64,000 nucleotides of DNA, taken from contig NC_135356.1 in assembly GCF_051622035.1 (NCBI RefSeq), positions 11,828,079-11,892,078 of the forward strand. The letters are read 5' to 3'. This stretch comes from Arctopsyche grandis (taxonomy: Eukaryota; Arthropoda; Insecta; Trichoptera; Hydropsychidae). A program made the translations under genes and the position numbers. A model generated the notes under the pieces. That model made no database searches and was not told the DNA's origin. It saw only the letters and a list, made by a program, of their open reading frames with translations. Shown one piece after another: positions 2,940 through 63,848 of the stretch (position 1 is its first letter; the number at the start of each line of letters is the position of its first letter).

Positions 2940-3230
2940 TTGATTAAAAAATCAAAAAATATATTAAAAAACACAATAAATTATACAAAATTATATAAAT
3001 TTACAACTTATATTTAAAATATTTAAAAAGAATTAAATCTTAAGTCTATTTTTAAGTCAATAATTGTTAATTTACGCAGCGTGTTAACAGGGCGAAAACT
3101 AACCGTGAACTGATTTTTTGTTTCTTTCATCCCCAGTTTCAAAATTTTCTGTTATTTTCATCACCACATGTGGGTTGCTATTCAATCTATCTGCCAGTGT
3201 TAAAATAAATACGTGTTTCCCTCTCGAATA
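2940..3230. other. AT-rich, no gene seen
   Basis: Low-complexity A/T sequence next to the Tc1 remnant. No open frame or repeat boundary could be supported. Confidence 0.5.
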
Positions 3231-5684: not shown

Positions 5685-5721
5685 CACCCGTCGGCTGTAG
5701 TTGGGGTTGGAGGCGCAAATC

Positions 5722-8700
5722 ATGCTGCCATTAAACGCATTATTCTTCATAGTGGTGTCAATGATGACCGTTACATCGGAAATGCAACCCACTTCTGTAG
5801 TCATATTATATAGACATGGCGATCGTACTCCCGTTGATCCTTATCCTTTGGATCCTTGGCGGAATCCTTCCTACTGGCCCGTTGGTTTCGGTCAGCTGAC
5901 TGATCGCGGCAAACTTCAGCACTACGAACTCGGAAAGATTCTTAGGAACAAATATAAGGTAAAACTCACACGCTTTCATTCATTGGATGGTTGTAATTCA
6001 ACGTTATTTAACTTTTTTTTGTGCTTTCGTTATCGGATGACAGTTAGCGGTGTGTCCACGCGTGTCACTATTATGTACAATATTTTCGTCTTTCTCATTG
6101 GTCGATTTCGTAAACAATTAACTAAATGGGCCAATCAGCGACGACTTCGAATTTTTCGGCATTTGAGGTTAATGTTCGAAATTGTTTTCTACGTATATAG
6201 TAGCAGCTTGGATATTTATTTGGTCGTAGTGTTGACTAAATCGGCCAAATTTAAATTTAATAAAAAATCTCATCTTATTGTAATCAGACCAATCGATTAT
6301 ACACAATAATCGATTATTATTAATATGACTATATATGTATTTATATATTATAAAGAGTAACTGAAAAAAAGTACCGAATCATTCGAAATGTTTATTACAC
6401 TTTTTTTACGCAATCATGTACAACATCTCTATGTTATGAGAATGTGATTAATATATCTGAACCATCGCTAATTTGTAATCCTTGCCGTTCCTTATCTGAC
6501 TATGAACTACAGTTGCTGTTATAAATAGCAATTAATCTGTTTCCACTATAGCATAGTGACTTATCTTACAAATCAGTATTGCTCAACTGTCTCTTTAAAA
6601 AAGAAGAAAAAAAGTTGTTTTTTTTTAATTATTTGTATTGAAATGTTTCAGCATTTGATCGGATCAAAATTCGATCCCAAAACAGTACATATCCAGTCGA
6701 CGGATTTTGATCGCACTTTGATGTCGGCTGAGGCCAACTTGGCGGGTAATTATCCTCAATCTTCATGCGCAAATGTGAAATTTCCGGCGTTTTACTGTAT
6801 CTCATCTGGTTGTTCGTAGGTATGTTTCCTATTAACGAGACCGAAGCACCGATTCCCGGACTATTGTGGCAGCCGATTCCGATTCATACAATGCCCCAAG
6901 ACGAGGATCACGTTCTTATGATTGCACTGTGTCCGAAATTTGACGTGGAACAGCAAAAATTTTTCGATTCGCCCTTTTTCCAGAAATTAAACGAAGGGTT
7001 TCAACAATACTATCGGTTTGTGATGGCAATATTGTATGCGAATTTTTTTACTTACTTCACTATGGCGGATTTTTTTATGTTTTCCATACATATTCATACT
7101 TCATTACAGGCGATATTATAGTTTTCATACATATTCATAGTTCATTATAAACAGTAACTCGTATTCTAATGAACACCAAAAACAACCCCTTACAATTATT
7201 AAAATTAAACATTGCATGCGCCATTCCTAGATTTTCAATGTATTTTTTTTTTAGGAAAATTTATGAAACAAACATCATTACCATCATATTGATTACTATT
7301 TTTTTAATTACAGAATATTTCTCTAGAATTGGTGCGAACGTGTACATATATATATATGTTCGTACCAGTCTCCCTCGCGGGCCCGAAAGTGAAACGCCCG
7401 AAAACGCAAAGATCTTAAGTCGAAAGATAAAAAAAGGGTGCATGGTAAACGGTACATACTCACTTAATTTGCGCGAGCAGGATACAACAGGAACAAGAGG
7501 AACAGGCTTTTCCTCCCGTATTCTGCGCGCGCACACTAAACAAGGTTGTATGACAAAAAGAGAGATAATTTCACCGCATGCCACTCATATATATTATATA
7601 TACATAGTACCGTTTACCATGCACCCTTTTTTTTTGATCTTTCGACTTAAGATCTTTTGATTTTCGATCTTTGCCTTCCGATATTTGCGTTTTCGGGCCC
7701 ATGAGGTAGACCCGTTCGTACATATCTCCATATTGTTTTGGTAAATTGAATCGATGTATGTACAAGAATTTATTCATCAAAAGTATCCAGTTCAGTTTAG
7801 TAAATAAATAATAGTAGATTGATTTCAACAGCTTAATATATGTATTGTTATGTTCTTTTATCATACGAATTATGATACCAGTTTTGATATGTACAGTTCA
7901 TGCACATCTAAGTTCGAACACTCTGTACTCCAGGCTATTTTGTGTACCTGCTCCCGTTATGAATGACATTTTGGGTTAATTTTTTTTGTAAACAATGCAA
8001 AGTATCCTATTGTATTTACTTACAAAGTATTTGGTGGAGTATTGTTCATACAAATATTTTAAAACCCAACTGATTCCGAAATCTGCTCAGTATAGGCGTT
8101 TGCTTCCTTCCGAAAAAAAAAGTGCTTATGAAGATTGAAACGAAAATGTATTTTTTTCTGCATTTCTACAATATCTTTCTGAGAAGTATAAGTGTTTATT
8201 CTTTTAAAATATGAATTTATTAATGGGATTTAGGGATCAAAGTGTGCTTCTACACTCAATTGGGTTTTAAAATATGTGTATGAACAATACTGCATCAAAT
8301 ACTTTGTAGACAAATACAATAGGATACTCAGCATTGTTACAAAAAAAAATGAACCCAAAATGTCATTCATAACAGGATCCCATACACAAAATAGCCTTGA
8401 GAAACAATTGTTCAAACTTCGATGAGCAGGGACTGTATAAAACGTTTATATAAAAGAAAATAACACCAATAGATAAAAGTAATAACACCAACAATATGTC
8501 ATTTAATCATATATGTATGTAAATATAACATAATAATATTTAAATACAAAAAAAAGTAGCAAAAAAGATAAAAGAACATTCGAGGAAAAACAATGTGCTG
8601 TATATAGCTAATAAAATGACCTTGTCACATTAAATATGTCGATACTGTATGATCAGCTACATATGTATATGATTAAATAACCCCATGGCTGTGCATATTG

Positions 8701-11688
8701 TAGAATTATGTTTCAGGAAAAATGAAAGAGATTATTTATACAATGAATCTTTGTATCATACTTTTAAGAATACATTTTCAATAATCTCATAAGTATGATA
8801 CATATATTCGAATATATTTGAACTTGAGCTTCTGAACCTTTAGAACTAAAATGTGAACTTGAGACGATATCGCGTATTAGGTGGACTGGCTTGGTCTGAT
8901 GTTCTGGCCATGCCGTACCTTATTACACACTAATTATGAGCTCACGTTCATACTAACTACATATTATATTATACTGAACTAAATTGATACTGATTTCTTG
9001 TACTGAGGTTACAGTTTAAATAGCAATAATTTGCTGATGTTAATGTTTTATGTATGTATATACATAGGTCGTGAGAATTACATTAGAAGTAACCCCGGAG
9101 TTTCATCGAATCTATGATGTCAACGTCTGTCATTCCTGTCTTATCGAATCATTGCATTTATACCAGTCTCCTATTATTTGAATCTAGACTGTGAGAATTT
9201 TGACGATGTCGATATTTTGATTGTTGTATCTTACTTTAAATTAGCTCGTGTAAATTAAATAATGTCAATGTTTGAAATTCTTGTCTAGTTACATTTGCAA
9301 CAGTATTACATATGTACATGAATATTGAATTATTTGTGGAGGGTCCATAACAATATGTATTTAAGTTGGAATTGTAATGAATACTATCTTGGACTAAAAT
9401 TGTCCGTAGAAATTCATTTTATTCTATATCTTGTTTCTACACTATATACGTATGAGTCGTTATATTTAAAAATAGCGAAAGTCCAAATTTCAATTCCAAA
9501 ACCTCTTTCTGTTTGACTTAATTCACAAATTGTTATCACTTCTTTTAATTCGATTTATCCAAAATCTCAAAAAAGCAGAATAAACGTATTACAGGCCACC
9601 AGTATTTTTAAATATTGCTAAACGCAAAACATTGTATTTAATGTTTTGTGAGATATTTTTCGAAATGAAGAAAAGTGGACTTTTGCCACTTTCAAATATA
9701 AAGGCTCATATAATGATTTTTATTTTATCATCATACTTTTCAATAGGGAGATACCAAAATTTAACTGTATTTGCGTTTAATGTTGCGTTTGTAATAAATA
9801 CTACAGATAGACATGCAAATGAAAACATTTGCTTTCTATTTTATCTAACACAACGTTTATTATTTGTTATAGTTACGTTACAAATCACACAGGAAGATAT
9901 ATAGACAACATTGTAGATATGTCGTATATTTATGATAATCTTCACATTGAAGAAATGAATGGTTTTGCATTGCCAGAATGGACCAAAGAAGTATATCCTG
10001 ACGTGTTAAAGAACATAACAAAATATAGGTATTATTATTTATGTATGTACTTAACGTATTTTCCAATAATCTGCCCAAGAAACCTCAATTACAATGTTAA
10101 CAATAACAAAAAATTACCAGAGCAGAGAATAATCAATCTATACTAAGTTTGATCCAATACATTCGAATATTTCATTGATTTTTGTTGGCTTTTTCTCGTT
10201 TATGAGATATAATCGTTTTAAAAAATAAAATAAAAAATCATTGCTTTAAAATACTAAATGTATAAAAAATTATATTTTACTTTCAAAATTCGCTAGATAA
10301 TTAATTAAAATTAAATTTTGTGTTAAAGACTACAAAAGCCTGTAAAAATTGCCCCTTTTAAAACGCTTATATCTCATAAACGAGGCAAAGCCGACAAGAA
10401 TCATTGTCAAATTCGAATTTAGTGGGTCAAACTTAGTAAAGATTGATTGGTCTCCGCTTCGGTAAGAATAAAAAGTGGTTTTATGTTAGTCAGTCGTCAG
10501 TGTAACCATTTAATGTACACAACGATCGATCTGGATTTTGTAATTTACAATCTATACTTAAACACAACTAATCAATTTTGTAAATTTGATTGTTTCAGCT
10601 TCATATTGAACACATACACACCGACATTGGCAAAATTAAAAATTGGCCCTTTCCTTAAAGAGTTGACTGAACAGATGGTATCGCCAATGAGCCAATTCAA
10701 GATCAAGGTGCTAAGCGCACACGACACCACTATAGCCAGCATATTGAATGGCCTTAACTTGAAGAGTTTCGAAATGCCACCGTATGCTTCAAATCTCATT
10801 TTTGAAATATACGCAAGTAATTATCTTTCATCTTATTATAACACAAGATATGTATGTACATCAAAGTGTGTATGTCAAAAATTTTCCATTTTCTGTTTCA
10901 GACCAATATCCTCCTTCGGTTCGAATTCTGTACCAAATGGAGGAATTGGTGATACCCAAGTGTGGAGTAATGTGTCCGTTAAGTCAGTTCATAACCAACT
11001 ATGCTCATCTGATTTCCAAGAATTATTCTGAAGAATGTCGAATAGACTCTCCGGAAACTTTAAATTATTCCATACTCACGCTGTATTCGGTGAGTATTAT
11101 ATTTTTAATTATTTTTCCTACTAGTGTCTTTACCCGGCTTTGCTCGGTATTTGTAATATAAACCGCTTAAACATAGCCAATTTAATAGTAAACATTTTAT
11201 TAAATTTACTTGATTAGTTTTATTTTATTTATATTTATTTGAATATTCATTTGTTTTCTTTTTATTAAATTGAACGTTGCAGATTTTCCGAACCACAAAC
11301 ATACATATAAAGTCTCTTTCGAAACTATATATTAAGACTAGTGTTTTTAGCTTCGCTTGGTATTTGTATGTAATATAAACTGCTTAAACATCGCCAATCT
11401 AATAATAAACATTTTATTAAATTTATTTGAATATTCATTTGTTCTTTTATACGAACCAAACAAACATACATACAAAGTCTCTTTCGAAATTATAGATTAT
11501 AGATATTAGATGATGTCTCTTTAGAAATTATAGATAGATATTAGATGATGCAATAGAAGTTAATATATCTGTATTTTCATTTTCAGGTGATTTTCATATT
11601 CGGTGCGGCCATCATTATTTTATTAATTTTTATAATCTTGATCTTTATCAAAAGATCGAAGATTAGTCAAATTACTCCAAAACAATGA
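5722..11688 (+). CDS. histidine acid phosphatase, type I membrane protein (lysosomal/prostatic acid phosphatase family), 7 exons
   Basis: Exons read as 5722-5958, 6652-6745, 6820-7015, 9873-10028, 10599-10816, 10902-11089 and 11587-11688; all introns are GT-AG, phases agree, and the total is 396 codons plus stop. The protein starts with a hydrophobic signal peptide (residues ~1-19). It carries the phosphohistidine motif RHGDRTP at 31-37, the phosphate-pocket arginine in DFDRTLMSA (R100) and the catalytic acid pair in SAHDTT (H269-D270). N-glycosylation sequons (for example N180-H-T) lie in the lumenal part. Residues ~364-384 form one transmembrane helix followed by a short basic tail, the lysosomal acid phosphatase layout. 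It should hydrolyse phosphomonoesters in an acidic lumen. The ATG at 5722 was chosen because it gives the signal peptide; an upstream in-frame TTG is not a likely start. Intron 3 (2.86 kb) holds two MITEs. All key residues are present, so the gene looks functional. Confidence 0.93.
7366..7713. mobile_element. MITE with 8-bp TSD inside acid phosphatase intron 3
   Basis: Ends pair as inverted repeats (CAGTCTCCCTCGCGGGCCCG against the inverted right end). Flanks are GTTCGTAC at 7358-7365 and 7714-7721. It is a relative of the elements at 4326 and 1385. The 8-bp TSD points to hAT-type mobilisation. Confidence 0.88.
7894..8435. mobile_element. long fold-back MITE, Tc1/mariner type (TA target site)
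   Basis: Starts CAGTTCATGCACATC and ends with the inverted equivalent, GCAGGGACTG. The two arms match in inverted orientation over about 200 bases each (for example ATGAATGACATTTTGGGTT on the left). It is flanked by TA on both sides, and the CAGT...ACTG ends with a TA duplication fit Tc1 elements. No transposase frame. Lies in intron 3 of the acid phosphatase. Confidence 0.8.
11128..11545. repeat. interspersed repeat, two adjacent partial copies, in acid phosphatase intron 6
   Basis: ACCCGGCTTTGCTCGGTATT at 11133 and a diverged second copy near 11350 share the following ~120 bases. Related ends occur at 55095-55150, and the AAGTCTCTTT tail recurs at 59170. Family not identified. Confidence 0.65.
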
Positions 11689-11966: not shown

Positions 11967-12912
11967 TTTAAAAAAATATATATATATATTTCTATGGTTT
12001 AAAGCTTTACTTTTTTTTGATCGATTATATTCAGATTTAAGTTCCCCCGATTTTTTTCTGCATAAAATACATAGTTCTCAAATTGATTATTTCATTCAAA
12101 CGAATAACACGATGATTTATAAGATCCGATTTTTTATTTAATGGATAGAAAAGTTTCAAAGCTATGTTAAATTTTGAAACTCCATTACTTTTACCGTTAC
12201 TTTACGAAAATTACGTGGGCTACCATAGAGTTTTCAGAAAATTAAGGCGGTCCATAATGAGTTAATAACAAATTAAATTTATCTAAAAAAATTAATATCA
12301 AATCGTAATTAAAAAATATATATGAGCTCAAAATTTTAAATAATTATAAATTATTATATACATAAGTGTAATAAATTATTAATAAAATCTCATTTTAATC
12401 GTATCGCAATATATGTATTGCATTCGAATTAATCCAAAATTGATCTTAAAGGTTTTATGTATGATCATAATAAGTCTGGAAAATAAAAATATTATTCATA
12501 TTTAAATAAATTTGTACTATTATACATATAATCAATATGTATTTAAGAAATGAAATCTAATATTCCAGATTTTTTTCCACCTGTTATATTATATTATACA
12601 ATATTTGATAAGCCTATGTACGTGCATACACATGTCAATCTTTTCAAATTACTTACATAATATGTATGTACATATCGATGGTTTGGTGCACAGATATTGT
12701 ATGTCCATTTTTGAATTTGTATCGAATTTTAAATTTGTACACTACATAAATTTCGTTCAAAGGAAGAACCTGAATTATTCCGGCATCTACAAACTTACAT
12801 CTACAGCACCAAGCCATCGATATGTACGATTAATGAAATTTTCAACTTAATTTTATCGGTGTTTTTATCATCTAGAACTATAATAATTTAAAAAATTGAT
12901 TACAATTTAACA
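11967..12912. other. no recognisable feature
   Basis: AT-rich spacer between the acid phosphatase gene and the hAT element. Open stretches here are short and uninformative. Confidence 0.5.
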
Positions 12913-12920
12913 CGTATACA

Positions 12921-14350
12921 TAGGGTTGCCATAATTGTCAAGCATTGATATGGGACATTTAAGTGCTACATAAATAAAACATGGAAAAGTAGGTAGGAAA
13001 TAGTTTATTTGAAAAAAATAGTCTTTTTTAGCCCAATCGTATTTTAACGATGATTTAACTTTTTTAATTAAATCGTTTTCCTCTTTTACATGATGATAAA
13101 ATTGGGCGCAAGTCATTTTAAAATTATACTGGTAAACCAAAATTGTCTCAACTGCCAGCTTATTTCTTTCATCCGACCATTGTGTTGACATCAGGGAAAA
13201 TATTCTCTCCACATTGACATTGTGGGCTGGAATGGCAAATATATACTCACATAGTTTTATTAAACATGACTTCTGTTCAATATGCTTGGTATCTCTAAAA
13301 AACTTCAGCCATTTCTCTTCCATACTCAATTTCAGCGTTGTCTCCCAGTTTTCGTTGGTATTATTTTTATTTAAAAAATCTTTTAAATATACGAACTGGT
13401 TGAAAAGAAGATCATTGTTTCCAACATCGATGTTCCTTACTTGCAAATATTCAATGGTTCGTTCTATTTCCCCCCCATTCAGGAACTTGCTTCGGAGTCA
13501 TCCAATCGAAAGCATTAAATTTTTTGAATGATTGGGACCACTTATCAATATATTCCACAGCAGTGCTAAAGAAATCGACAGTCTGTTTTTCGAAAGTTTC
13601 CACTTTGGCACTGTTTCCAGAATCAAGCTTTAAGAGATTTAAGATTTTTTTTGTCGTCATTCCAATAAAATTGGATTTTTTTCTATCGATCATATGTCGT
13701 TTTGCCTCTTCTAATAAAGACTTTACTTCCAGGACTGTGATGTTTGATTTTTTAATTTGAGATTCAAATGTATTGAGCTGTGAATGCAAGAAGCAAAAAT
13801 AAGCTTCAATCATTGGATCATCAAAAAAATCTTTAAGGGCTTTTGGTGGTCTGTCTTCGTTAGCGAAAAAATCTTTTAATGGCTGCCACAGATTCAATAT
13901 TCTTTCAATTGCAGGTAAAAGTGATAACCACCTGGTCCCAACGTAGGATAATAAGTTTTGGTAGGCAACACCAACATATTCACAAAAGTCTTTGAGTTTT
14001 TCAGTCCTCACGGTGTAAATGTTAAAGTACTTGAATATCTTGACGACTATTGATTCAACGTCGACAGTCAAAACATCAGCGGCTATTCATAGAGTGTTAT
14101 GCAAAACGTGTGCTAGACATCCTATGCCTTCAATATCTCTTTCCAATTAAGAATTCAGTCTAAAAAAACATTATTTCTTCCAGCTCGGTCTAGACCTCCA
14201 AAGTTAGTGTTCGTATTATCTCCACAAAAAACGATAAGCTTATCCATGGGAATATTTCAGTTTAGGGAGAAAACGGGACAAATTGTAAAACGGGACCGGG
14301 TAGTGAAATACGGGACATGTTCCGTATATACGGGACGTATGGCAACCCTA
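12921..14350 (-). mobile_element. hAT transposon, internally deleted, exact 8-bp TSD
   Basis: The ends TAGGGTTGCCATA and TATGGCAACCCTA are perfect inverted repeats, flanked by CGTATACA at 12913-12920 and 14351-14358. On the minus strand the transposase remains from a FCGDNTNTNFGG segment (~14200) through YQNLLSYVGTRWLSLLPA and DDPMIEAYFCFLHSQLN to the hAT dimerisation region with the signature AHNVNVERIFSLMSTQW. A frameshift near 13450 and stops upstream of 14071 break it. The BED-finger N-terminus is absent, and at 1.43 kb it is shorter than an autonomous hAT. Dead, but with ends crisp enough to suggest moderate age. Confidence 0.92.
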
Positions 14351-15689: not shown

Positions 15690-16330
15690 CAAATGTCAAG
15701 CCCTTGTCCTATTTACAAAAAAATTATATAAAAACATACATATACATATATAAGTTCTCCATCGAAAACGATTTGGTCACATGTGGTATGAGCATTAAAG
15801 AATTAATAATGAAAAATCATGTTTTTTACAAATTCACATATTTAAAGATAATTTTAAAACAAGATTTGTGTATGTATTCAGGTACCAAAATTTAAAATTA
15901 AACCTAATATATCAAAATGGACAAACCCTATTAAAAAAAATGTCAATTACATTTAAGGTGGAACAAATATAATATATTTTAATAACTTGTGTGATTCATT
16001 TCTATTTTATTCGGGGCTGTGAAGTCAGAGTCGTAAAAGATCAATGGAGTCAAGACTTCTCAAATTTCAATTTTTTTATTATCAAATGTCAACTCCACAG
16101 CCCTTGTTTTATTTACAAAAAAATTATAACATATAAAGGTTCTACATCGAAAAGGATATAGTCATATGTGGTATGAGCATTAAAGAATTAATAATAAAAA
16201 ATCATGTTTTTTACAAATTCATATATTTAAAGATACATGTGATATGAGCATTAAAGAATAAATAATGAAAAATCATGTTTTTTACAAATTCACATATTTA
16301 AAGATAATTTAAAATTAACAAGCCCTATAT
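15690..16330. repeat. local tandem duplications in the 3' flank of the unrecognised gene (copy 1)
   Basis: A block containing TATGAGCATTAAAGAATTAA and AATCATGTTTTTTACAAATT occurs at about 15780-15860, 16160-16220 and 16225-16310. An inverted single counterpart lies at about 22430-22540, downstream of gene copy 2. The 3' flank was therefore part of the inverted duplication and was later multiplied on this side only. Confidence 0.8.
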
Positions 16331-16428
16331 AACACAGTCACTGTGTAATTTAACATGTTAATTAATTAAAAAAATATCTAGTATTCACCTTAAGTAAAAA
16401 TTATCAGTAGAAATCAAAAAATAACAGT

Positions 16429-17630
16429 TTAATATAATGTCAACTGATTATTTGGATCGATGGCAGCTGACTGGCCGCCATTGCGCACAATGAAAAAAAT
16501 GCCATCGTAGTGCATTCTGCGATCGCCTCTTCTAAAATTGCACAAAACTCATTTAAAAACAAGAAACATTTAAAAACATTAACATTAAGAAAGAGACGTA
16601 CCTCACGAACAAATGCCCGTTTGAGTTCAACGAGGCAGTACATTGGAATTGCTGATTTTTGATCGAAACGGTCCCTTGAGTCGGATTTAAACATATTTCA
16701 TATGTATAGGCGTCATGATAAATCCTGAAAGAATCGTTGAGTCAATTTGATAATTTGATCGCAATAATTTCAACCAACTTTACCAACCTGATGTTTTCGT
16801 TCGACGACTGGCTTATATGAACGTTGCCGACTTTCCAATTTTCATGATTGATGTTGCTTAACCAGTATTGAGATGCGTGCATAACCGACCAAGCATTATT
16901 AATAGAACCCCAGCCATAATGAGAATTGCTGAAAACGATACACAACTTTATTGCTCTTACACACAATTATTGTTCGTAACTATCTTAATCATACATAGCC
17001 AAATTTCATACAAGTAAAACGCCTTCGTAGTGAGATCATTCTCCATTAATAAAAACCAATCGAAAGTAGTTTTTGTACCGCCAGCATCCAGTAGGTATGT
17101 TACGGCGTGGTCATCCGTAGTGAAAGACACACCTTTCTTCCACATTTTTGCATATCTAAAACGTTTCGCACACGCTAGAAACAATATCTATTACTTTTTA
17201 AAACGATCATACACACATGATTGGTTTTACCGAATTCCTCTTATATTAGCGGCTTGTATTTCTACTTGTGATGTGCATTCGAACACTTTTCCTTTGGGGT
17301 GTTCCATGACTGACATGGTTCCGCAAGCGGAAATTGCCACTTTTATGCCGTATTCCAAATTCGCAAGATATACTGCTCCATCGACGGTTAATTCAAGGCT
17401 GAAATTGTCATTGTATAATAATTAGAATAGAAACGGTGAGTACTAAGAAAAGTGATTGAGATGACTCACATGTGTCCCTTCAAAAGTATAAATATTGTTC
17501 CTTGTTCTGAGATCTGTATTCCCGGCACCTATTTGAATTCAATATACAATTAATTTAGTACAATTCATGTGTAATATTGATACTTATATTATTTGCATAC
17601 TATGGTGCATATTCCTTCGTCGTACGACAT
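16429..17630 (-). CDS. unrecognised gene, paralogue 1 (255 aa, 7 exons)
   Basis: I do not recognise the family. Exons on the minus strand: 17601-17630, 17470-17528, 17231-17398, 17012-17155, 16788-16928, 16602-16724 and 16429-16531; introns are GT-AG and phases agree, giving 255 codons plus stop. The protein starts MSYDEGICTI and ends in NNQLTLY. It is rich in short beta-type segments and in Gly, Asn, Tyr and Trp, has few cysteines, and has no signal peptide or membrane helix in this model. IYHDAYTYEIC in exon 6 resembles the triplets around exon 1 (an in-frame IYHR lies just before the ATG after a possible acceptor), so exon 1 may be internal and real 5' exons may be missing. The inverted paralogue at 21103-22299 keeps the same exon structure with mostly conservative differences, which argues that both were under selection. 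Start choice is the weak point. Confidence 0.75.
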
Positions 17631-18178
17631 TCTATGATAGATCCTTAAACGTTGAAACCAGAATGAATTATTGAATATCTGTTTTTATTATAATCATGAA
17701 AAGCCGGTTTTTAATTATTTTTTTAATTTTAATTGAAATTGTTCTATTTATATCTACAATATACGAGTAGGATTCGATCCGTGAAAGAACTTGTGGCAAT
17801 GATAGCTAATGACTCGTTCAGTGCTGATAAGTCACGTTAAGTTAAAGAAATTTGTGACGACGTTTAACAAAGTACAAACTATAACCATCAAAGTTGCCAG
17901 TCATTCGGATTTTGACGGGAATGTCCCGATTTAGTAACCAGTCCCGCGTTCCGAAATGCAGTCTGTAAATCCTGGTTTACAAAGAATTTTTTAAAATCTA
18001 ACTAATGGGTACATCGATACAAAATACGTAGCTGCAAACATCGTATGCATCGTTTCCGCAATCCTAGGATTCCCCCACAAGTACATACATGGATATGTGA
18101 GAAATGGATAATTGAATTATTAGTCACAAAGACAATTTTTGCCATTAAAATCGCGAATACACAATATTCGGCACTCAA

Positions 18179-18749
18179 GTTCTCGTTAGTATGATGGACT
18201 TTTCGGCTGCCAGATGTTCCGTCATAAACATTTTAGTGACTTTGTGACCAGTAATCACCGAGACGAGAAATGATGGATACAGAGCCAAAAAGCTAAGAAA
18301 ACATTTTAAACTTTTCAATTCTCCCACTTAAATACAAAAACAGAAAGAATTTTTACTTTAAAAACGATGGCAAGACGGAATTTTAAGGTGTCATATAAAG
18401 AGTTGGGTGAAATTTTAAAGAAAAATAAGATTCAAATTAATTTTAAATGCTTGTGCGATGACGAGTAATTTCATCGAGCGTTATCTCTATAAATATAATA
18501 CATTAATAATGAAATAATATTCACTGAATTAATAAAATCACATACTATAAAAGTTATAATCGCCCAGGCTGGAAATTGAATCTTTGGCTGTCGAATACAT
18601 TACATATGCTGTCGGTTTTTCCCCGAACATGTATTTACATATATGTACACTCATTCAAATGGTTCGGTGATTATTATTGGTCACAAAGTTATTAAAATCT
18701 CTATAACGGAACATCTTTCAGCCGAAAAGTCCATCGTACTAACGATAAC
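18179..18749. mobile_element. fold-back element with ~90-bp inverted arms
   Basis: The left arm (CTCGTTAGTATGATGGAC ... GTGACCAGTAATCACCGAG) and the right arm (TTCGGTGATTATTATTGGTC ... GTCCATCGTACTAACGA) are inverted copies. A third arm lies alone at 54590-54770, and a second whole copy lies in the duplicated segment at about 60455-61060. No coding content. Class undetermined. Confidence 0.72.
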
Positions 18750-19431
18750 TATCATACTAACCCGTGTAAGTATATACGCGAGAAGGGGCTTTCAACACAA
18801 GAAATAGTAAAAATAGGATTCGTTCGTTTCATAAATTAAAACAAAATAGTGAATCAATATCTATGCTGCAAATAACTTGCGAGCGTACGACAGGACAAGA
18901 TGTTTATAATAAAATTATGTTTCTTCATATTTAGAACAATTTAAAATATCATAGGAGTTACATATGTATGTGTACGGATGTTGCTCCGTCAATGGTTAGG
19001 GTTATTTAAAGTATTTGTTACCCTTGGTCTCTTGCAAAGACAAGAAGCCCTAATATTATATCTTCGCACAGTTTTTTTTTTATTAAATAGAGAATCATCT
19101 AGTTAAAAAAAAAACCAGCAGCACTGAAACTTATACTAGATAAATTTCATCAAATCGAGACCGTTAAAAACACACATTTTTAAAAAATTATGGAAGTTAT
19201 GGAAGTAGTTATGGAAGCTACATAAGTACAAATGTTTGCCTTTTCACACTCGAGTCAGGTGGTAGGGGTAAAGTTGTATGCCTTCATAAAACTTTGAATG
19301 AATTGTTTATCTTTTTCCGAAATTAAGGTATGAATGCTTTTGTAAAATATCTACAGAATAATGATTAGTGTGCTAAAATTGCATATTTATTAGGTATTTT
19401 TAATTTCTTTAATAACGTTAGCACAAGCGTT

Positions 19432-20736
19432 CAAAAGTCCTGTTCTTTTTATTAATAAATAAAAACTATGAAAAAATACGCGTTTTCTTGAATACACATA
19501 CTATTACGTACAAATTGGTAGATTTCCCGTTTTGAGGACAAAAATAAATCGTCACATTAATCATATCTGCATACATAGATAACGTTTATACATACAAACT
19601 GCTTCTTTTGGAAATACAATATAAACATTGAAATTGTTCATAATTTATACCATCTCCTACTCGTCCCCTACGAGCAGACATCGTTTATGGCCCGTGCGAA
19701 TTCCTCCCTATCATGGGCAAGCCGAAACAATTTTTCGAGTCCGAGTCCCATCCATGACCTGAATTTGGGTCTCTGGACTTGACCCAGCCGGGTAGCATCG
19801 GCCAACATATGACTTAAAAACCCGGATTCTGGGTATGTATTTAAAATTTCGATGGTTAACGTAAAAATTCAAAATGAGTTTCAGTCGATACGTTGAAAAT
19901 ATCCAAATATGTGTTATTTATGTACATGATTCATATATGTACATATGTATGACCTTTATTTGCTCGAGAACTTGATTTTATGACCTCTGAGCAAACTGGG
20001 AGCGATGGAAAGGTACCGAAAGCAATATAGCGTATGTACTGAAATTTGGCTAAATTTAGAATTTCACCCGTATACAGTGTACACATTTGCCTCTTCGAAA
20101 GCGAAGTAAGCTTTCGATTTTTATTATTATGTAGAATTTTGCCTTAGACTACTCAGACAATCGTTTCAACATTATCATATCTGATTTCGTTAACGGTAAG
20201 TACTTTATTTTAATTATTTCTTGTAATTCTCTTAAAAAAATCAGTTTCATTCTTGACCGAAAATAAGTATATGTAGTTTTCATTATATTTTTTGGAAAAC
20301 TACAAAATCCTATAATAATAATGATAGTAATAAAGGGACACAAAATCACATATTTGCTAAATGTGCCGATAATATTGTATTCCTCTAGCGAGATACATAT
20401 GTATATCTAATGTGACCATTTATTTTTGTCCTCAAAACGGGACATCTACCAATTTTTACATATGTGTATACAAGAAAACGCGTATTTTTTCATAGTTTTT
20501 TTTATTAATAAAAAGAACAGGAATGTTGATGAAGAATGTTTTTCTGATGAACAAATTTTCTTAAGTATTACTGGGTTTGCTTTTAAATAAGAATGAAATT
20601 CTTGGCAGGATTTCTTAAAATTGATTTTATTAACAACATCGCTTTAAGAACTGCGACTTGCAATTGCGTATTCATCTGTGAAAAGACTCTTTCTACGGCT
20701 GCATTAGTTCCGGGCAGGCATAAAATGTATTCAACA

Positions 20737-20740
<4 letters not shown>
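19432..20740 (-). mobile_element. hAT remnant with inverted arms and a transposase C-terminus
   Basis: Arms at 19432-19560 and 20404-20525 are inverted copies (shared words AATACGCGTTTTCTTG and CCGTTTTGAGGACAAAAATA). Next to the right arm, minus-strand codons 20740-20590 read CLPGTNAAVERVFSQMN, the hAT dimerisation signature, followed by QLQVAVLKAMLLIK. In the duplicate at 63.7 kb the same frame keeps seven extra residues (KLWTTEN) after SQMN, so this copy lost 21 bp in frame. Ends not resolved. Confidence 0.75.
19640..19805 (-). mobile_element. LINE 3' end fragment
   Basis: Minus-strand frame reads VQRPKFRSWMGLGLEKLF then RLAHDREEFARAINDVC, resembling the extreme C-terminus of endonuclease/reverse-transcriptase LINE proteins. 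Only about 50 residues are present. The solo LTR in the second copy of this segment sits inside this fragment. Confidence 0.55.

Positions 20741-20831
<91 letters not shown>
20741..20831. repeat. (TA)n microsatellite, about 90 bp
   Basis: Long uninterrupted AT dinucleotide run at the right edge of segmental duplication copy 1. A matching run lies at 63849-63910 at the edge of copy 2. Confidence 0.97.
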
Positions 20832-20834
<3 letters not shown>

Positions 20835-21102
20835 ATTCAATAAATATACTCACTAACGTGTATTTTTAGCGTATATTATTTTAAAAATTTCAATTAAAAT
20901 TAAAATTTTTTATTTAAATAAATAATAAAAACTAGCTTTTGTTTTCCTGTTTTTATCGAGCGTAACTCTTGTGGTGAAACATTATAAAGGTAAATTTATA
21001 CAATATATGTATTCCAATATAAAAACAGTGTAAATTTATACAATATAAAACAGACATTCAATAATTCATTCTGGTTTCAACGTTTCAAGGATCTATCATT
21101 CA

Positions 21103-22299
21103 ATGTCGCGCGACGGAAGAATATGCACCGTATTCAAAGAATATGCAAATAAGTATCAATACTTTTTTACACATGAATTGTACTAAATTAATTGTATATT
21201 GAATTCTATTAGGTGCCGGGAGTCCAAGTCTCACAACACGGAACAATATTTTTACTTTTGAAAGGACACATGTGAGTCATCTCAATCAATTTTCTTTGTG
21301 CTCACCGTATTTAGACTAATTATACGATGACAATTTCAGACTTGAATTAACCATCGATGGAGGAGTGTATCTAGTGAATTTGGAATACGGCATAAAAGTG
21401 GCAATTTCCGCTTGCGGAACCATGTCAGCCATGGAACATCCCAAAGGAAAAGTTTTCGAATACACATCGAAAGTAGAAATACAAGCTGCTAACAAAAGAG
21501 GCATTAGGTAAAACCAATCATGTGTGTATGGTCGTTTTAAAAAGTAATAGATATTGTTTCTAGCGTGTGCGAAACGTTTTAGATATGCAAAAATGTGGAA
21601 GAAAGGCGTGTCTTTCACTACCGATGACCGCGCCGTAACATTCTTACTGGATGCTGGTGGTCCAAAAACCACTGTGGATTGGTTTTTATTAATGGAGGAC
21701 GATCTCAATTCGAAAGCATTTTATTTGTATGAAATTCAGCTATGTATGATCAAAATAGTTGAGAACATTAATAACGTTGTGTATCGTTTCCAGCAATTCT
21801 CAATATGGCAGGGGTTCCGTTAGTGACGCTGTGTCGCTTATGCACGGATCTCAATACTGGTTCAATGATTTCGATCAGGAAAATTGGAAAGTCGGCAACG
21901 TTCGTATAAGCCAGTCGTCGAATGGAAGCATCAGGTTGGTAAAATCGGTCGAAATTGTTGCGATGAAATTATCAAATTTACTCTATGTACGATTCTTTTA
22001 GGATTTATCACGACGCCCATACGTATAAAATATGTTTAAATCCGACTCAAGGGGCCGTTTCGATCAAAAATCCACAATTTCAATGTACTGCCTCGTTGAT
22101 CTCAAACGGGCATTTGTTCGTGAGGTACGTCTCTTTCTTAAAATGTTAATGGTTTGAGATGTTTCTAGTTTGTAAATGAGTTTTGTCCAATTTTAGAAAA
22201 GGCGATCGCAGAATGCACTACGATGGAAATTTATTCGTTGTGCGAAATGGTGGTCAATCAGCTGCCATCGATGAAAATAATCAGTTGAAACTATATTAA
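21103..22299 (+). CDS. unrecognised gene, paralogue 2 (254 aa, 7 exons)
   Basis: Plus-strand exons 21103-21129, 21213-21271, 21340-21507, 21583-21726, 21794-21934, 22002-22124 and 22197-22299; all introns are GT-AG, phases agree, 254 codons plus stop. Exons 2-7 have exactly the same lengths as in paralogue 1, and every reading frame is intact. Conserved blocks include LEYGIKVAISACGTM, MEHPKGKVFE, RYAKMWKKGVSFTTDD, ENWKVGNVRISQSSNG and MHYDGNLFVVRNGGQSAAI. I cannot assign a function. The pair diverges from a 3.5-kb spacer (17631-21102), so the presumed promoters face each other; the spacer is transposon debris with TGATAA-like GATA sites, too common to interpret. As in the partner, IYH codons occur just upstream of the ATG after a possible acceptor, so further 5' exons may once have existed. 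Confidence 0.75.
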
Positions 22300-40276: not shown

Positions 40277-40852
40277 TTACATAATTTTTGCGCCACGCAT
40301 TGCTGCTCACAACCTCGTCGACAGATTTCGTGCTTCCCCTCGGGCCTTCATGTAGAATTGATACACAAACTTCCGATTGCCGTAGCGTGTTGTGAGTTAC
40401 TCAATTATTAGCTGGTAGTCGTCCTGCGTATCCTGTGGAAGCCGGCAGACGAAGTTCATGGCCGCGCCACTCATTGCTGCACACAACCTCGTCGACAGAT
40501 TTCGTGCTTCCCCTCGGGCTTTCTTGTAGAATTGATATACGGACTTCCGATTGCCGTAGCGTGTTGTGAGTTTCTCAATTAGTAGCTGGTAGTCGTCCTG
40601 CGTATCCTGTGGAAGCCGGCAGACGAAGTTCATGGCCGCGCCACTCATTGCTGCACACAACCTCGTCGACAGATTTCGTGCTTCCCCTCGGGCTTTCTTG
40701 TAGAATTGATATACGGACTTCCGATTGCCGTAGCGTGTTGTGAGTTTCTCAATTAGTAGCTGGTAGTCGTCCTGCGTATCCTGTGGAAGCCGGCAGACGA
40801 AGTTCATGGCCGCGCCACTCATTGCTGCACACAACCTCGTCGACAGATTTCG
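40277..40852 (-). repeat. 174-bp tandem repeat within the gag part of the Gypsy fossil, unit A (about 3.3 copies)
   Basis: GAAGTTCATGGCCGCGCC recurs at 40451, 40625 and 40799, a 174-bp (58-codon) period, with a diverged partial copy at the left. Translated words such as MSGAAMNFVCRLP identify it as gag-derived. The same array has about six full copies in unit B. Confidence 0.93.
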
Positions 40853-42701
40853 TGCTCCCTCAAGTCGAGCTGTGAATCGGAATCTCGCCAGAAATTCCTC
40901 CGAGGAACCTGACCCATCGTATGTCGGGATTATTATTCTCGTCCAGGCCCCCGTTGCGTGGCATCTGATTGCTGATTTCAGTGCTAGAAGCCATCGTTCC
41001 ACTAGTCCATTTACCTGTGGGTGGTACGTCGTTGTCCTGTTGTGCTTCGTACCCAGCAGCTGGCTCAAGGCATTGAAAAGCTCACATTCGAACTGTCTCC
41101 TTTGATCAGTCGTAATCGTTTCTGGGCTTCCAAAACGGGCCAGCCCTACAACGAATGTTTTGCCTCTGTTTCCGCTTTTATGTCCGGGATTGGGATGGCT
41201 TCCGACCATCGTGTGTAGCGGTCCACACATGTCAAGATGTATGTGTGTCCATTGGATGGTGGTAATGGTCCCACTATGTCCACATGAGCATGAGCGAACC
41301 TTGATGTTGGCGTGGTGAAAATTCCTATCGGTGTCTGTGTATGACTCGTGGTTTTTGCTCTCTGGCAACTCGTACAGGTCCGTGTCTTGATCTTGACCTC
41401 GATCCATTTTACGATGTGTAGGTAAGAAGGAGACTTTGACGCCTGTCTCGCTCTCCTCCTTTTTTTCGTTCAGCACTTAATACCGGTTTCTGGGGAGCTG
41501 TTGATATAGTTCTAAGTTAGAACAAAAATCTCTGCACCGGTGTCGACAACCATTTGACAACCGATCAACGGAATTGATAATTTATTAATAATTAAAATAT
41601 TTAATTTTTTTGTATTAAAAATTCATCCGATCGCAATCATAATCATAATCTGTTAAGATGTATGCGGGATGCTTTGGATGTTTGAGACCGAAAGCAGATT
41701 GAGTCTTAAATAAAAACTAAGGAATGATTGGTTGTTTTATGATATCCTCAGACAGCAACCTCCTGACGTCAATCCTCAGGAATTTTCTCCTCCGGTTCCC
41801 AAGTGTTCTATCTCTGGATACTGTTTACTTTATCTACACACAGTATGTAGTAACAACAATATTCTGAAACAACTGGTTTCATGACTTTTTCGTTGAAATT
41901 TCGAAAACTCCGATTTTCCGCACGAAGTCCACTCCTAGCAGGACTTCGTCATGGATATCGGCCACGGCGAAATTTCACTTGATTATGATTATGATTTGCT
42001 CATGCACTTGATCTTGACCTCGATCCATTTTACGATGTGTAGGTAAGAAGGAGACTTTGACGCCTGTCTCGCTCTCCTCCTTTTTTTCGTTCAGCACTTA
42101 ATACCGGTTTCTGGGGAGTTGTTGATATAGTTCTAAGTTAGAACAAAAATCTCTGCACCGGTGTCGACAACCATTTGACACGGTATGTCACCAATCGTTG
42201 CCCGCCAATGTAAGCTCGCTGGGTGGTCCTCTCTCGCCTTTGAATGCCGCCAAATGCAATGCATGGCACATGGCATTCTGTCCATGGCACGAAGTAGCTC
42301 AGCTGTCGTCAGATCTCTTCGGTCGCCGACTATTTCTATTTCTTCGTTGCTCTGCTCATCTCCGATTCCACTTGACTGACACCAATGTTGCGTGGACGTG
42401 AGGTGGGGGCTTCCAGAATCGGAGAGAAAGACGCAGGAAGTTGTAGTAGCGGTTTATTGGTCTGCTCTCGTTGGCGCTCCAGGTCGGAATGCTTTCCAGA
42501 CCGAGAGCGCCCCATATTTATACCCGTTGGGCACAATACACATACATGTAAACTATTGGTCGATGAGTGGGGCGATCCCATTGGCCGTTACATACGGCTT
42601 ATTCATTAGGCGAGGACATTTTTGCGCGAGCGAGAGATCAGGTGATCAGCGCTCGTAAGCCATTGGTCCACGAGCACCACCCACTCAATCTCTACGTTAC
42701 A
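40853..42701 (-). mobile_element. Gypsy-type LTR retrotransposon fossil, unit A/B junction copy (LTR 42386-42701)
   Basis: On the minus strand: LTR 42701-42386, then the short internal region as in unit A, then integrase-related sequence (41480-40860) next to the gag array. The order is scrambled relative to an intact Gypsy element, no second LTR is seen on the far side, and there are several breaks. The broken copy is shared through the tandem amplification. Confidence 0.8.
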
Positions 42702-45465: not shown

Positions 45466-46563
45466 TTACATAATTTTTGCGCCACGCATTGCTGCTCACA
45501 ACCTCGTCGACAGATTTCGTGCTTCCCCTCGGGCCTTCTCGTAAAATTGATATACGGACATCCGAATGCCGTAGCGTGTTGTGAGTTTCTCAATTAGTAG
45601 CTGGTAGTCGTCCTGCGTATCCCGTGGAAGCCGGCTGACGAAGTTCATGGCCGCGCCACTCATTGCTGCACACAACCTCGTCGACAGATTTCGTGCTTCC
45701 CCTCGGGCCTTCATGTAGAATTGATACACAAACTTCCGATTGCCGTAGCGTGTTGTGAGTTACTCAATTATTAGCTGGTAGTCGTCCTGCGTATCCTGTG
45801 GAAGCCGGCAGACGAAGTTCATGGCCGCGCCACTCATTGCTGCACACAACCTCGTCGACAGATTTCGTGCTTCCCCTCGGGCCTTCATGTAGAATTGATA
45901 CACAAACTTCCGATTGCCGTAGCGTGTTGTGAGTTACTCAATTATTAGCTGGTAGTCGTCCTGCGTATCCTGTGGAAGCCGGCAGACGAAGTTCATGGCC
46001 GCGCCACTCATTGCTGCACACAACCTCGTCGACAGATTTCGTGCTTCCCCTCGGGCTTTCTTGTAGAATTGATATACGGACTTCCGATTGCCGTAGCGTG
46101 TTGTGAGTTTCTCAATTAGTAGCTGGTAGTCGTCCTGCGTATCCTGTGGAAGCCGGCAGACGAAGTTCATGGCCGCGCCACTCATTGCTGCACACAACCT
46201 CGTCGACAGATTTCGTGCTTCCCCTCGGGCTTTCTTGTAGAATTGATATACGGACTTCCGATTGCCGTAGCGTGTTGTGAGTTTCTCAATTAGTAGCTGG
46301 TAGTCGTCCTGCGTATCCTGTGGAAGCCGGCAGACGAAGTTCATGGCCGCGCCACTCATTGCTGCACACAACCTCGTCGACAGATTTCGTGCTTCCCCTC
46401 GGGCTTTCTTGTAGAATTGATATACGGACTTCCGATTGCCGTAGCGTGTTGTGAGTTTCTCAATTAGTAGCTGGTAGTCGTCCTGCGTATCCTGTGGAAG
46501 CCGGCAGACGAAGTTCATGGCCGCGCCACTCATTGCTGCACACAACCTCGTCGACAGATTTCG
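45466..46563 (-). repeat. 174-bp tandem gag repeat, unit B (about 6.3 copies)
   Basis: GAAGTTCATGGCCGCGCC recurs at 45640, 45814, 45988, 46162, 46336 and 46510, always 174 bp apart. The left copies carry the differences seen in the left copies of unit A, so expansion happened by adding central units. Confidence 0.95.
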
Positions 46564-49033
46564 TGCTCCCTCAAGTCGAGCTGTGAATCGGAATCTCGCC
46601 AGAAATTCCTCCGAGGAACCTGACCCATCGTATGTCGGGATTATTATTCTCGTCCAGGCCCCCGTTGCGTGGCATCTGATTGCTGCTTTCAGTGCTAGAA
46701 GCCATCGTTCCACTAGTCCATTTACCTGTGGGTGGTACGTCGTTGTCCTGTTGTGCTTCGTACCCAGCAGCTGGCTCAAGGCATTGAAAAGCTCACATTC
46801 GAACTGTCTCCTTTGATCAGTCGTAATCGTTTCTGGGCTTCCAAAACGGGCCAGCCCTACAACGAATGTTTTGCCTCTGTTTCCGCTTTTATGTCCGGGA
46901 TTGGGATGGCTTCCGACCATCGTGTGTAGCGGTCCACACATGTCAAGATGTATGTGTGTCCATTGGATGGTGGTAATGGTCCCACTATGTCCACATGAGC
47001 ATGAGCGAACCTTGATGTTGGCGTGGTGAAAATTCCTATCGGTGTCTGTGTATGACTCGTGGTTTTTGCTCTCTGGCAACTCGTACAGGTCCGTGTCTTG
47101 ATCTTGACCTCGATCCATTTTACGATGTGTAGGTAAGAAGGAGACTTTGACGCCTGTCTCGCTCTCCTCCTTTTTTTCATTCAGCACTTAATACCGGTTT
47201 CTGGGGAGCTGTTGATATAGTTCTAAGTTAGAACAAAAATCTCTGCACCGGTGTCGACAACCATTTGACAACCGATCAACGGAATTGATAATTTATTAAT
47301 AATTAAAATATTTAATTTTTTTGTATTAAAAATTCATCCGATCGCAATCATAATCATAATCTGTTAAGATGTATGCGGGATGCTTTGGATGTTTGAGACC
47401 GAAAGCAGATTGAGTCTTAAATAAAAACTAAGGAATGATTGGTTGTTTTATGATATCCTCAGACAGCAACCTCCTGACGTCAATCCTCAGGAATTTTCTC
47501 CTCCGGTTCCCAAGTGTTCTATCTCTAGATACTGTTTACTTTATCTACACACAGTATGTAGTAACAACAATATTCTGAAACAACTGGTTTCATGACTTTT
47601 TCGTTGAAATTTCGAAAACTCCGATTTTCCGCACGAAGTCCACTCCTAGCAGGACTTCGTCATGGATATCGGCCACGGCGAAATTTCACTTGATTATGAT
47701 TATGATTTGCTCATGCACTTGATCTTGACCTCGATCCATTTTACGATGTGTAGGTAAGAAGGAGACTTTGACGCCTGTCTCGCTCTCCTCCTTTTTTTCG
47801 TTCAGCACTTAATACCGGTTTCTGGGGAGTTGTTGATATAGTTCTAAGTTAGAACAAAAATCTCTGCACCGGTGTCGACAACCATTTGACAACCGATCAA
47901 CGGAATTGATAATTTATTAATAATTAAAATATTTAATTTTTTTGTATTAAAAATTCATCCGATCGCAATCATAATCATAATCTGTTAAGATGTATGCGGG
48001 ATGCTTTGGATGTTTGAGACCGAAAGCAGATTGAGTCTTAAATAAAAACTAAGGAATGATTGGTTGTTTTATGATATCCTCAGACAGCAACCTCCTGACG
48101 TCAATCCTCAGGAATTTTCTCCTCCGGTTCCCAAGTGTTCTATCTCTAGATACTGTTTACTTTATCTACACACAGTATGTAGTAACAACAATATTCTGAA
48201 ACAACTGGTTTCATGACTTTTTCGTTGAAATTTCGAAAACTCCGATTTTCCGCACGAAGTCCACTCCTAGCAGGACTTCGTCATGGATATCGGCCACGGC
48301 GAAATTTCACTTGATTATGATTATGATTTGCTCATGCACTTGATCTTGACCTCGATCCATTTTACGATGTGTAGGTAAGAAGGAGACTTTGACGCCTGTC
48401 TCGCTCTCCTCCTTTTTTTCGTTCAGCACTTAATACCGGTTTCTGGGGAGTTGTTGATATAGTTCTAAGTTAGAACAAAAATCTCTGCACCGGTGTCGAC
48501 AACCATTTGACACGGTATGTCACCAATCGTTGCCCGCCAATGTAAGCTCGCTGGGTGGTCCTCTCTCGCCTTTGAATGCCGCCAAATGCAATGCATGGCA
48601 CATGGCATTCTGTCCATGGCACGAAGTAGCTCAGCTGTCGTCAGATCTCTTCGGTCGCCGACTATTTCTATTTCTTCGTTGCTCTGCTCATCTCCGATTC
48701 CACTTGACTGACACCAATGTTGCGTGGACGTGAGGTGGGGGCTTCCAGAATCGGAGAGAAAGACGCAGGAAGTTGTAGTAGCGGTTTATTGGTCTGCTCT
48801 CGTTGGCGCTCCAGGTCGGAATGCTTTCCAGACCGAGAGCGCCCCATATTTATACCCGTTGGGCACAATACACATACATGTAAACTATTGGTCGATGAGT
48901 GGGGCGATCCCATTGGCCGTTACATACGGCTTATTCATTAGGCGAGGACATTTTGGCGCGAGCGAGAGATCAGGTGATCAGCGCTCGTAAGCCATTGGTC
49001 CACGAGCACCACCCACCTAATCTCTACGTTACA
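46564..49033 (-). mobile_element. Gypsy-type LTR retrotransposon fossil, unit B/C junction copy (LTR 48718-49033)
   Basis: Same parts and order as the copy at 40853-42701, with the 621-bp module (47272-47892) duplicated in tandem. Broken and scrambled like its relatives. Confidence 0.8.
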
Positions 49034-52017: not shown

Positions 52018-53537
<1,520 letters not shown>

Positions 53538-59040: not shown

Positions 59041-59661
59041 TGAATCCATTGAATCGAAAAAAAACAAATCGGCGCCTATGGATCGAAAAAAATCGAATCA
59101 CGTGTTCGATGACGTCACCGATATACGGACGACGACGAAGGATACTTACATACATACATACATACATACAAAGTCTCTTTCCAAATTATATATTAGAAGA
59201 TAAGAAGATATATAAAAACGGACTGTCGCTAAATATATATATTTGTATATTTTTATGTTTGTATATATGTGACGGACGATCAACCGTCAACCGGTATGGG
59301 GAACAAATTTTTTTTTTTTCATATTTTTCTATTTTGAGTTGGTTTTTAAGCTCTTTTTCCTATTATGCTTTAGATTAACACTAGAATAATATAATACTGT
59401 GATTACTAACCAAATTAAATTAAAATTGTAAAATAGAAAATGATCAGTAGCTATTAAAATAGATATAAGATGTATTGTGAACATAATTTCGTAATAATAA
59501 AAAGCATTTAAAAATCAAAAAATATCTTTCATTTTTTCAGTTTTTTCATTTTTTTCATTTTTTTCATTTTTTCAGTTTTTCAGTTTCCCAGTTTTTTCAG
59601 GTCCCGGGGTGCCGAAGGCATTGGGGGCGCTGGGGGCGCCGGAGGCGTCGGCGGCGCTGGA
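59041..59661. repeat. interspersed repeat tail and low-complexity DNA
   Basis: CGATGACGTCACCGATATAC, a TACA microsatellite (59148-59170) and AAGTCTCTTTCC resemble the tail of the repeat in acid phosphatase intron 6. 59520-59600 is TTTTTCA-type low complexity, and 59600-59660 a GGCGCTGGGG-type GC-rich patch. Confidence 0.6.
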
Positions 59662-59945
59662 GTATTCCAAATTCGCAAGATATACTGCTCCATCGACGGT
59701 TAATTCAAGGCTGAAATTGTCATTGTATAATAATTAGAATAGAAACGGTGAGTACTAAGAAAAGTGATTGAGATGACTCACATGTGTCCCTTCAAAAGTA
59801 TAAATATTGTTCCTTGTTCTGAGATCTGTATTCCCTTTTACCTATTTGAATTCAATATACAATTAATTTAGTACAATTCATGTGTAAAATATTGATACTT
59901 ATATTATTTGCATACTATGGTGCATATTCCTTCGTCGTACGACAT
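59662..59945 (-). pseudogene. truncated third copy of the unrecognised gene (exons 1-3)
   Basis: Minus strand keeps exon 1 (~59916-59945), exon 2 (59782-59841) and the first 49 bases of exon 3. Exon 2 is one base longer than in both intact paralogues, with its first bases changed, so the frame is lost. Exons 4-7 are absent. It arrived with the segmental duplication. Confidence 0.85.
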
Positions 59946-62890: not shown

Positions 62891-63679
62891 CTCTGGACTT
62901 GACCCAGCCGGGTAGCATCGGCCTACATATGACTTAAAACCCGGATTCTGGGTATGTATTTAAAATTTCGATGGTTAACGTAAAAATTCAAAATGAGTTT
63001 CAGTCGATACGTTGAAAATATCCAAATATGTGTTATTTATGTACATGATTCATATATGTACATTTGTATGACCTTTATTTGCTCGAGAACTTGATTTTTT
63101 GACCTCTGAGCAAACTGGGAGCGATGGAAAGGTACCGAAAGCAATATAGCGTATGTACTGAAATTTGGCTAAATTTAGAATTTCACCCGTATACAGTGTA
63201 CACATTTGCCTCTTCGAAAGCGAAGTAAGCTTTCGATTTTTATTATTATGTAGAATTTTGCCTTAGACTACTCAGACAATCGTTTCAACATTATCATATC
63301 TGATTTCGTTAACGGTAAGTACTTTATTTTAATTATTTCTTGTAATTCTCTTAAAAAAATCAGTTTTATTCTTGACCGAAAATAAGTATATGTAGTTTTC
63401 ATTATATTTTTTGGAAAACTTCAAAATCCTATAATAATAATGATAGTAATAAAGGAACAAAATCACATATTTGCTAAATGTGCCGATAATATTGTATTCC
63501 TCAAAACGGGACATCTACCAATTTTTACGTAATAGTACATATGTGTATTCAAGAAAACGCGTATTTTTTCATAGTTTTTATTTATTAATAAAAAGAACAG
63601 GAATGTTGATGAAGAATGTTTTTCTGATGAACAAATTTTCTTAAGTATTACTGGGTTTGCTTTTAAATAAGAATGAAAT

Positions 63680-63838: not shown

Positions 63839-63844
63839 ATTATA

Positions 63845-63848
<4 letters not shown>

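What the first reader, a model, noticed from the sequence alone, without database searches (positions are those of the whole stretch)
16429..22299. Two intact, inverted paralogues of an unrecognised seven-exon gene
Seen: both copies have matching exon lengths for exons 2-7, agreeing splice phases and no broken frame (255 and 254 aa). Differences are mostly conservative and the introns are shared, so this was a DNA-level inverted duplication. Inference: keeping both frames open while transposon debris fills the spacer points to selection on both. I can attach no known family. Conserved Gly/Asn/Trp/Tyr patterns suggest a compact beta-rich fold. This is the best candidate in the window for something undescribed.
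Basis: partly seen in the sequence, partly recalled or inferred. Interest (0 to 1): 0.8.

Follow-up and report, generated by a model that had tools for sequence, protein, structure and literature searches.

The report
Two copies of an unclassified, amplified gene
A real but unclassified animal gene sits here as a back-to-back pair that is one unit of a larger, very recent gene array; one copy is kept nearly unchanged, the other is drifting, and a single more distant copy lies elsewhere on the same chromosome.

Summary
Spliced models at the stated coordinates give open frames of 255 aa (A, minus) and 254 aa (B, plus), with identical lengths for exons 2-7. The pair is not alone. The window's own genome holds A three times and B three times with identical coding DNA, a fourth B with ACG at the start codon, at least nine partial copies, and one intact paralogue D about 2.5 Mb away with B's exon lengths. 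The array also carries histidine-phosphatase DNA (3 copies) and a zinc-finger gene (6 near-identical copies).

B-D dN/dS is about 0.15, so this is a conserved gene. Polarised by D, B is conserved (7 N, 10 S) while A is fast (35 N, 18 S), in exons and not in introns. "Selection on both" is firm for B, weak for A.

Pfam (A, B, D), NCBIfam and PHROGs (B only) and PDB sequences gave no match that holds across the copies. The one suggestive hit (A to aegerolysins, E 0.009) fails for B, D and both profiles. Molecular function unknown. Ordinary gene amplification, modest interest.

The parts
16429..16531 (-). copy A exon 7 with stop
   Evidence: spliced model
16602..16724 (-). copy A exon 6
16788..16928 (-). 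copy A exon 5
17012..17155 (-). copy A exon 4
17231..17398 (-). copy A exon 3
17470..17528 (-). copy A exon 2
17601..17630 (-). copy A exon 1, coding part (start ATG; one codon longer than in B and D)
20956..20989 (+). copy B candidate 5' non-coding exon (3' part; its 5' end is unknown), donor at 20990; homologous DNA in D, none found in A and C
   Evidence: alignment and blastn; in-frame stop upstream of the ATG after splicing; no RNA evidence
21090..21129 (+). copy B exon 1 (ATG at 21103)
21213..21271 (+). copy B exon 2
21340..21507 (+). copy B exon 3
21583..21726 (+). copy B exon 4
21794..21934 (+). copy B exon 5
22002..22124 (+). copy B exon 6
22197..22299 (+). copy B exon 7 with stop
59662..59945 (-). 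copy C, truncated third copy (exons 1, 2 and the start of exon 3; exon 2 start altered; homology ends at a G-rich low-complexity stretch)
17693..21038 (.). spacer between the head-to-head copies; most of it recurs beside copy C (17350-20831 matches 59662-63940 in three pieces at 91-98%)

Best explanation
This is a genuine, conserved, spliced protein-coding gene family of one genome, most likely an insect. D, about 2.5 Mb away, represents the older single-copy state. The lineage leading to A and B separated from D, then made an inverted head-to-head duplicate (A/B). Later, blocks carrying A/B together with the neighbouring histidine-phosphatase DNA were copied in tandem very recently, giving extra identical copies and broken offshoots (C, B', B4). 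B is the working, constrained copy. A is loosening or shifting in function. The product is probably a soluble intracellular protein of about 28 kDa; the array would mainly raise its dosage. Shown: gene models as sequence, copies, rates. Inferred: transcription, order of events, dosage effect, location in the cell (no signal-peptide predictor was available; hydropathy only). The molecular activity is not established.
For: Identical exon lengths in B and D, and in A for exons 2-7. B-D dN/dS 0.15 by NG86, 0.15 by YN00, 0.19 by ML, bootstrap 0.10-0.21, with five alignable introns 35% diverged and 10 intron indel events against none in the exons. Own-genome DNA matches: 3 A, 4 B-type, 5 C-type, 4 B', 2 pieces of D, 1 fragment on C3 (19 matches from 18 scored candidates; counts are lower bounds). 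The 4201-bp stretches around the three A loci are identical; two other B surroundings differ from the window's by 1-2 mismatches and 8-10 gap positions in 4154 columns and have identical CDS. Phosphatase DNA repeats at the same spacing as A (88,368, then 72,993 against 72,994); of its three 4-kb surroundings two are identical and one differs by 3 mismatches and 25 gap positions. Relative-rate test A 53 against B 17, p 1.7e-5; introns 11 against 13. Highest 19-residue Kyte-Doolittle mean 1.24-1.34, which speaks against a membrane span.
Against: No RNA evidence: splice sites, start and expression are inferred. The start codon is uncertain: B4 and all four B' copies read ACG there, and D has a short upstream frame that ends in a stop just before the splice donor. 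In A-B, dS (0.22-0.29) exceeds intron divergence (0.09), so synonymous sites and introns disagree as a neutral yardstick. The N/S contrast between A and B is not significant (p 0.09) nor is synonymous against intron asymmetry (p 0.26). Identical copies could in principle be an assembly artefact.
Confidence: 0.75

Rival explanations
1. Both copies are under full selection and are functionally distinct, A being neofunctionalised by positive selection after duplication.
For: A-only changes are concentrated in exons: 53 against 17 for B, while introns show 11 against 13 (Fisher p 0.011; non-synonymous against intron p 0.002). A's non-synonymous rate per site (35/577) exceeds its intron rate (11/329). 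A keeps an open frame with no length change in exons 2-7.
Against: A's synonymous changes are also high (18 in 158 sites) and its N/S ratio is 0.53, below 1. N/S of A and B do not differ significantly (p 0.09). No match to the 5' non-coding exon was found in A. Counts are small and the D outgroup is distant (dS 0.67-0.99 by three methods).
Confidence: 0.2
2. A is a dying copy held open by chance and by gene conversion from B; only B and D are genes.
For: Accelerated evolution, no 5' non-coding exon found, N/S only modestly below neutral (35 of 53, two-sided p 0.04), P(no stop) 0.15 for half of the changes, one 75-bp identical run over intron 3 and the start of exon 4 (about 0.017 such runs expected).
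Against: No indel in exons 2-7 although about 5 would be expected if A alone drifted for half the divergence (P 0.005); the 3-nt difference in exon 1 keeps the frame.
Confidence: 0.35
3. The protein is a remote aegerolysin-like lipid-binding protein.
For: phmmer of A against PDB sequences: 6 of 7 sequences listed at E up to 10 are ostreolysin A6 or pleurotolysin A, E 0.009-0.051, query residues 110-168.
Against: B and D give no PDB hit at E 10; the A/B profile none, the A/B/D profile only an unrelated E 0.49 hit; Pfam none at E 10 for A, B and D. Two tryptophans in the matched stretch are A-specific (B has R and V, D has R and F).
Confidence: 0.04
4. The identical array units are an assembly artefact and the biology is just one A/B pair plus D.
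For: 100% identity of A over 4201 bp at three places.
Against: Unit spacings differ (88,368 and 72,994) and copy counts differ between markers (phosphatase 3, zinc finger 6, C 5, B' 4); B surroundings differ in 1-2 bases and 8-10 gap positions, one phosphatase copy in 3 bases and 25 gap positions.
Confidence: 0.15

Closest known systems
Recently amplified tandem gene families such as Drosophila Sdic (PMC7475035; only the search listing with the start of the abstract was seen)
   Same: tandemly repeated similar gene copies within one lineage
   Different: different protein; here an inverted pair is part of the repeated unit and one arm diverges faster
Aegerolysins (ostreolysin A6, pleurotolysin A)
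   Same: weak 59-residue similarity of copy A only
   Different: not reproduced with B, D or profiles
Strand-turn-strand proteins such as polo-box, SPAG17 or C5orf34-like (recalled, a lead only)
   Same: alternating hydrophobic strands around D-G turns, by eye
   Different: Pfam found nothing for A, B or D; the direct PF15025 search (accession recalled as a C5orf34 domain) did not complete

Membership tests
Aegerolysin | significant match to a family profile | tested here: not met
   0 Pfam families at E up to 10 for A, B and D
Aegerolysin | similarity shared by all paralogues | tested here: not met
   A hits at E 0.009; B, D and the two-sequence profile none, three-sequence profile no aegerolysin
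Aegerolysin | beta-sandwich fold | not tested
   no structure predicted; the tool as described takes proteins that the DNA gives letter for letter, and these are spliced
Functional duplicate gene pair | intact frame, splice sites and purifying selection in each copy | tested here: inconclusive
   B met; A intact but N/S 35/18
Recent tandem segmental duplication | near-identical multi-kb units repeated along one chromosome | tested here: met
   assembly artefact not excluded
Protein with internal repeats from exon duplication (exons 3-6 have lengths divisible by 3 and the same phase) | detectable similarity between exons | tested here: not met
   hhalign of exon 3, exon 4 and exons 5-7: probability 0.1-0.2 (on its 0-100 scale) in all 3 comparisons; exons 5, 6 and 7 were not compared with one another

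The most novel reading that the evidence does not exclude
A taxon-restricted protein family without a described fold whose copy A, in a recently amplified palindromic array, has undergone exon-only accelerated, adaptive change towards a new role while its inverted partner B is kept constant.
Probability: 0.12. Interest if true: 0.5.

Novelty: new member of a known kind. Interest (0 to 1): 0.3.

Why it matters
It shows a clean early stage of gene amplification: one conserved gene, an inverted pair with one constrained and one fast arm, and identical tandem units with broken offshoots beside them. It also gives an unclassified protein family with three distinct intact sequences to fold and name. 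Neither point overturns anything known.

Tried and rejected
Aegerolysin lead: rejected as above. Viral, bacterial and phage origin: no relative was returned from viral contigs (4 protein or alignment scans, and 2 DNA patterns), genome contigs or phages; the contig scans only reach what matches short peptide patterns. said that 1 of 2 pattern matches encodes a relative but returned no locus (records of this genome or a near one may be left out). Structural RNA or tRNA: none at Rfam's gathering scores or by ARAGORN. Internal repeats: none found. More distant paralogues in the own genome: two exon-7-like fragments on C3 (the one aligned carries a stop); two further hits at E above 1 are chance level. 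Structure prediction was not tried: the tool's description asks for proteins that the DNA gives letter for letter, and a spliced protein is not read in one frame. The PF15025 own-genome search was sent 8 times and never answered. One search printed nothing because of a scripting slip and was redone; one search failed because loci are stored together, redone. One search also printed hits for L011 where the newly fetched L032 was meant; L032 was not examined. One search tested the number of amino-acid changes against 49 although 47 were observed; that figure is not used. In the rate counts exon 1 was left out and 17 unpolarised exon differences and 12 ambiguous intron differences were dropped; intron 3 was left out of all counts with D because D carries a 542-bp intron there.

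Full report
Observation. Copy A lies on the minus strand (16429-17630) and copy B on the plus strand (21103-22299). All introns are GT-AG, exons 2-7 have identical lengths and the frames are open, 255 and 254 aa. The homologous block 16139-17692 / 22548-21039 is 83% identical over 1581 columns, introns included, so it is an inverted DNA duplication with the two copies head to head. A third copy C (59626-59945, minus) breaks off in exon 3 at a G-rich low-complexity stretch and its exon 2 start is altered. Most of the A/B spacer recurs beside C (17350-20831 against 59662-63940, three pieces at 91-98%).

Beyond the window. The window is C2:11828079-11892078 of a 475.7-Mb genome. The DNA search with copy A gave 19 matches from 18 scored candidates (counts are lower bounds): A three times at 100%, B-type four times at 87%, C-type five times, a 5'-half B' four times, two pieces of a diverged locus D on C2 near 14.385 Mb, and one fragment on C3. 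The A surroundings are identical over 4201 bp in all three places; two other B surroundings differ from the window's by 1-2 mismatches and 8-10 gap positions in 4154 columns, and B4 by 7 mismatches in the 2732 bp it shares. A histidine-phosphatase stretch occurs three times at the same spacing as A; of its 4-kb surroundings two are identical and one differs by 3 mismatches and 25 gap positions. The window's zinc-finger gene occurs six times near-identically on C2. These markers span about 11.745-12.173 Mb. Unit spacings differ (88,368 and 72,994), which speaks against a simple assembly duplicate but does not exclude one.

D. Locus L009 carries an intact gene of 254 aa with exon lengths 27, 59, 168, 144, 141, 123, 103, the same as B. 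D is 76% identical to B. B and D share a candidate 5' non-coding exon whose splice donor follows AAACATTATAAAG; no match to it was found in A and C. Spliced to exon 1 it puts an in-frame stop upstream of the ATG in B and in D, which makes that ATG the likely start, by inference. Against this, B4 and the four B' copies have ACG there; B4 differs from B by only two bases in the whole CDS, both in exon 1. D's upstream exon also holds a short frame, read by eye as MLLFFICLFF..., that stops just before the donor. So the true N-terminus needs RNA evidence.

Selection. B-D: dN/dS 0.15 (NG86; bootstrap 0.10-0.21), YN00 0.15, ML 0.19; five alignable introns 35% diverged with 10 indel events, exons none. 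The gene is therefore real and conserved. A-B: dN/dS 0.31 (0.21-0.51). Polarised with D, A carries 35 non-synonymous and 18 synonymous changes, B 7 and 10, with 17 not polarised. The relative-rate test gives p 1.7e-5. In introns A and B changed equally, 11 and 13, with 12 ambiguous in 329 columns, so the asymmetry is in exons (Fisher p 0.011; non-synonymous p 0.002; synonymous p 0.26). A still shows some constraint: no indel in exons 2-7 (P 0.005 if A alone drifted for half the divergence) and N/S below neutral (p 0.04). Results against a simple reading: N/S of A and B differ only at p 0.09; open frames alone are weak evidence (P(no stop) 0.15 for half of the changes); and A-B dS (0.22-0.29) is well above A-B intron divergence (0.09), so introns and synonymous sites disagree as neutral yardsticks. 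Patchy gene conversion is possible (a 75-bp identical run, about 0.017 expected).

What it is. Pfam for A, B and D and NCBIfam for B gave nothing at E up to 10. PHROGs for B gave only three hits at E 0.13 or worse. PDB sequences gave nothing for B, D and the A/B profile, one unrelated E 0.49 hit for the A/B/D profile, and for A alone six aegerolysin sequences (best E 0.009) plus an E 1.4 hit. The aegerolysin match includes two tryptophans that only A has and is treated as chance. Hydropathy speaks against a membrane span; no signal-peptide predictor was available. A soluble intracellular protein is the most likely reading; its activity is unknown. Resemblance by eye to polo-box, SPAG17 or C5orf34-like strand-turn-strand repeats is recalled and untested. 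(TTAGG)n arrays are abundant (24,896 forward and 18,545 reverse matches, control 0), which by general knowledge fits a non-dipteran insect or other arthropod; the species was not identified.

Verdict. A true, unclassified, conserved gene in a recent amplification array; B constrained, A loosened or shifted. Papers: only search listings with the starts of abstracts were seen; no paper was read, and no claim is made that this family is absent from print.

Noticed in passing
window 40397-41476 and 45934-47187 (minus): Two long, nearly identical frames with internal tandem copies of one segment that matches DUF1759 (retroelement-like, recalled).
   Followed up: no
window 52079-53482 (minus): C2H2 zinc-finger gene with a zf-AD match below its cut-off, present in six near-identical copies on C2 and with many relatives on other chromosomes.
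   Followed up: partly
window 5701-6309 and 10447-11031 (plus): Histidine-phosphatase (branch 2) gene pieces (the second match is below the cut-off); a 1-kb stretch of the first occurs three times with the array.
   Followed up: partly
window 12907-14071 and 63463-63993 (minus): Frames of which 12907-13446 and 63463-63993 show hAT dimerisation-domain matches below the cut-off; 13451-14071 had no Pfam match and looks like hAT transposase by eye only.
   Followed up: no
L009 about 2960-3023: D's upstream exon holds a short hydrophobic frame (by eye MLLFF..., then ICLFFIERGFHCGTL and a stop); B has a related frame (FIERNSCGETL and a stop) without the ATG.
   Followed up: partly
L010 4662-4763 (C3); also C3:34349983-34350084: Exon-7-like fragments of this family far from the array; the one aligned has an internal stop.
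   Followed up: partly
Viral-contig scan with B: One public viral-collection stretch was said to encode a relative of B but was not returned, perhaps an insect contig filed as viral.
   Followed up: no
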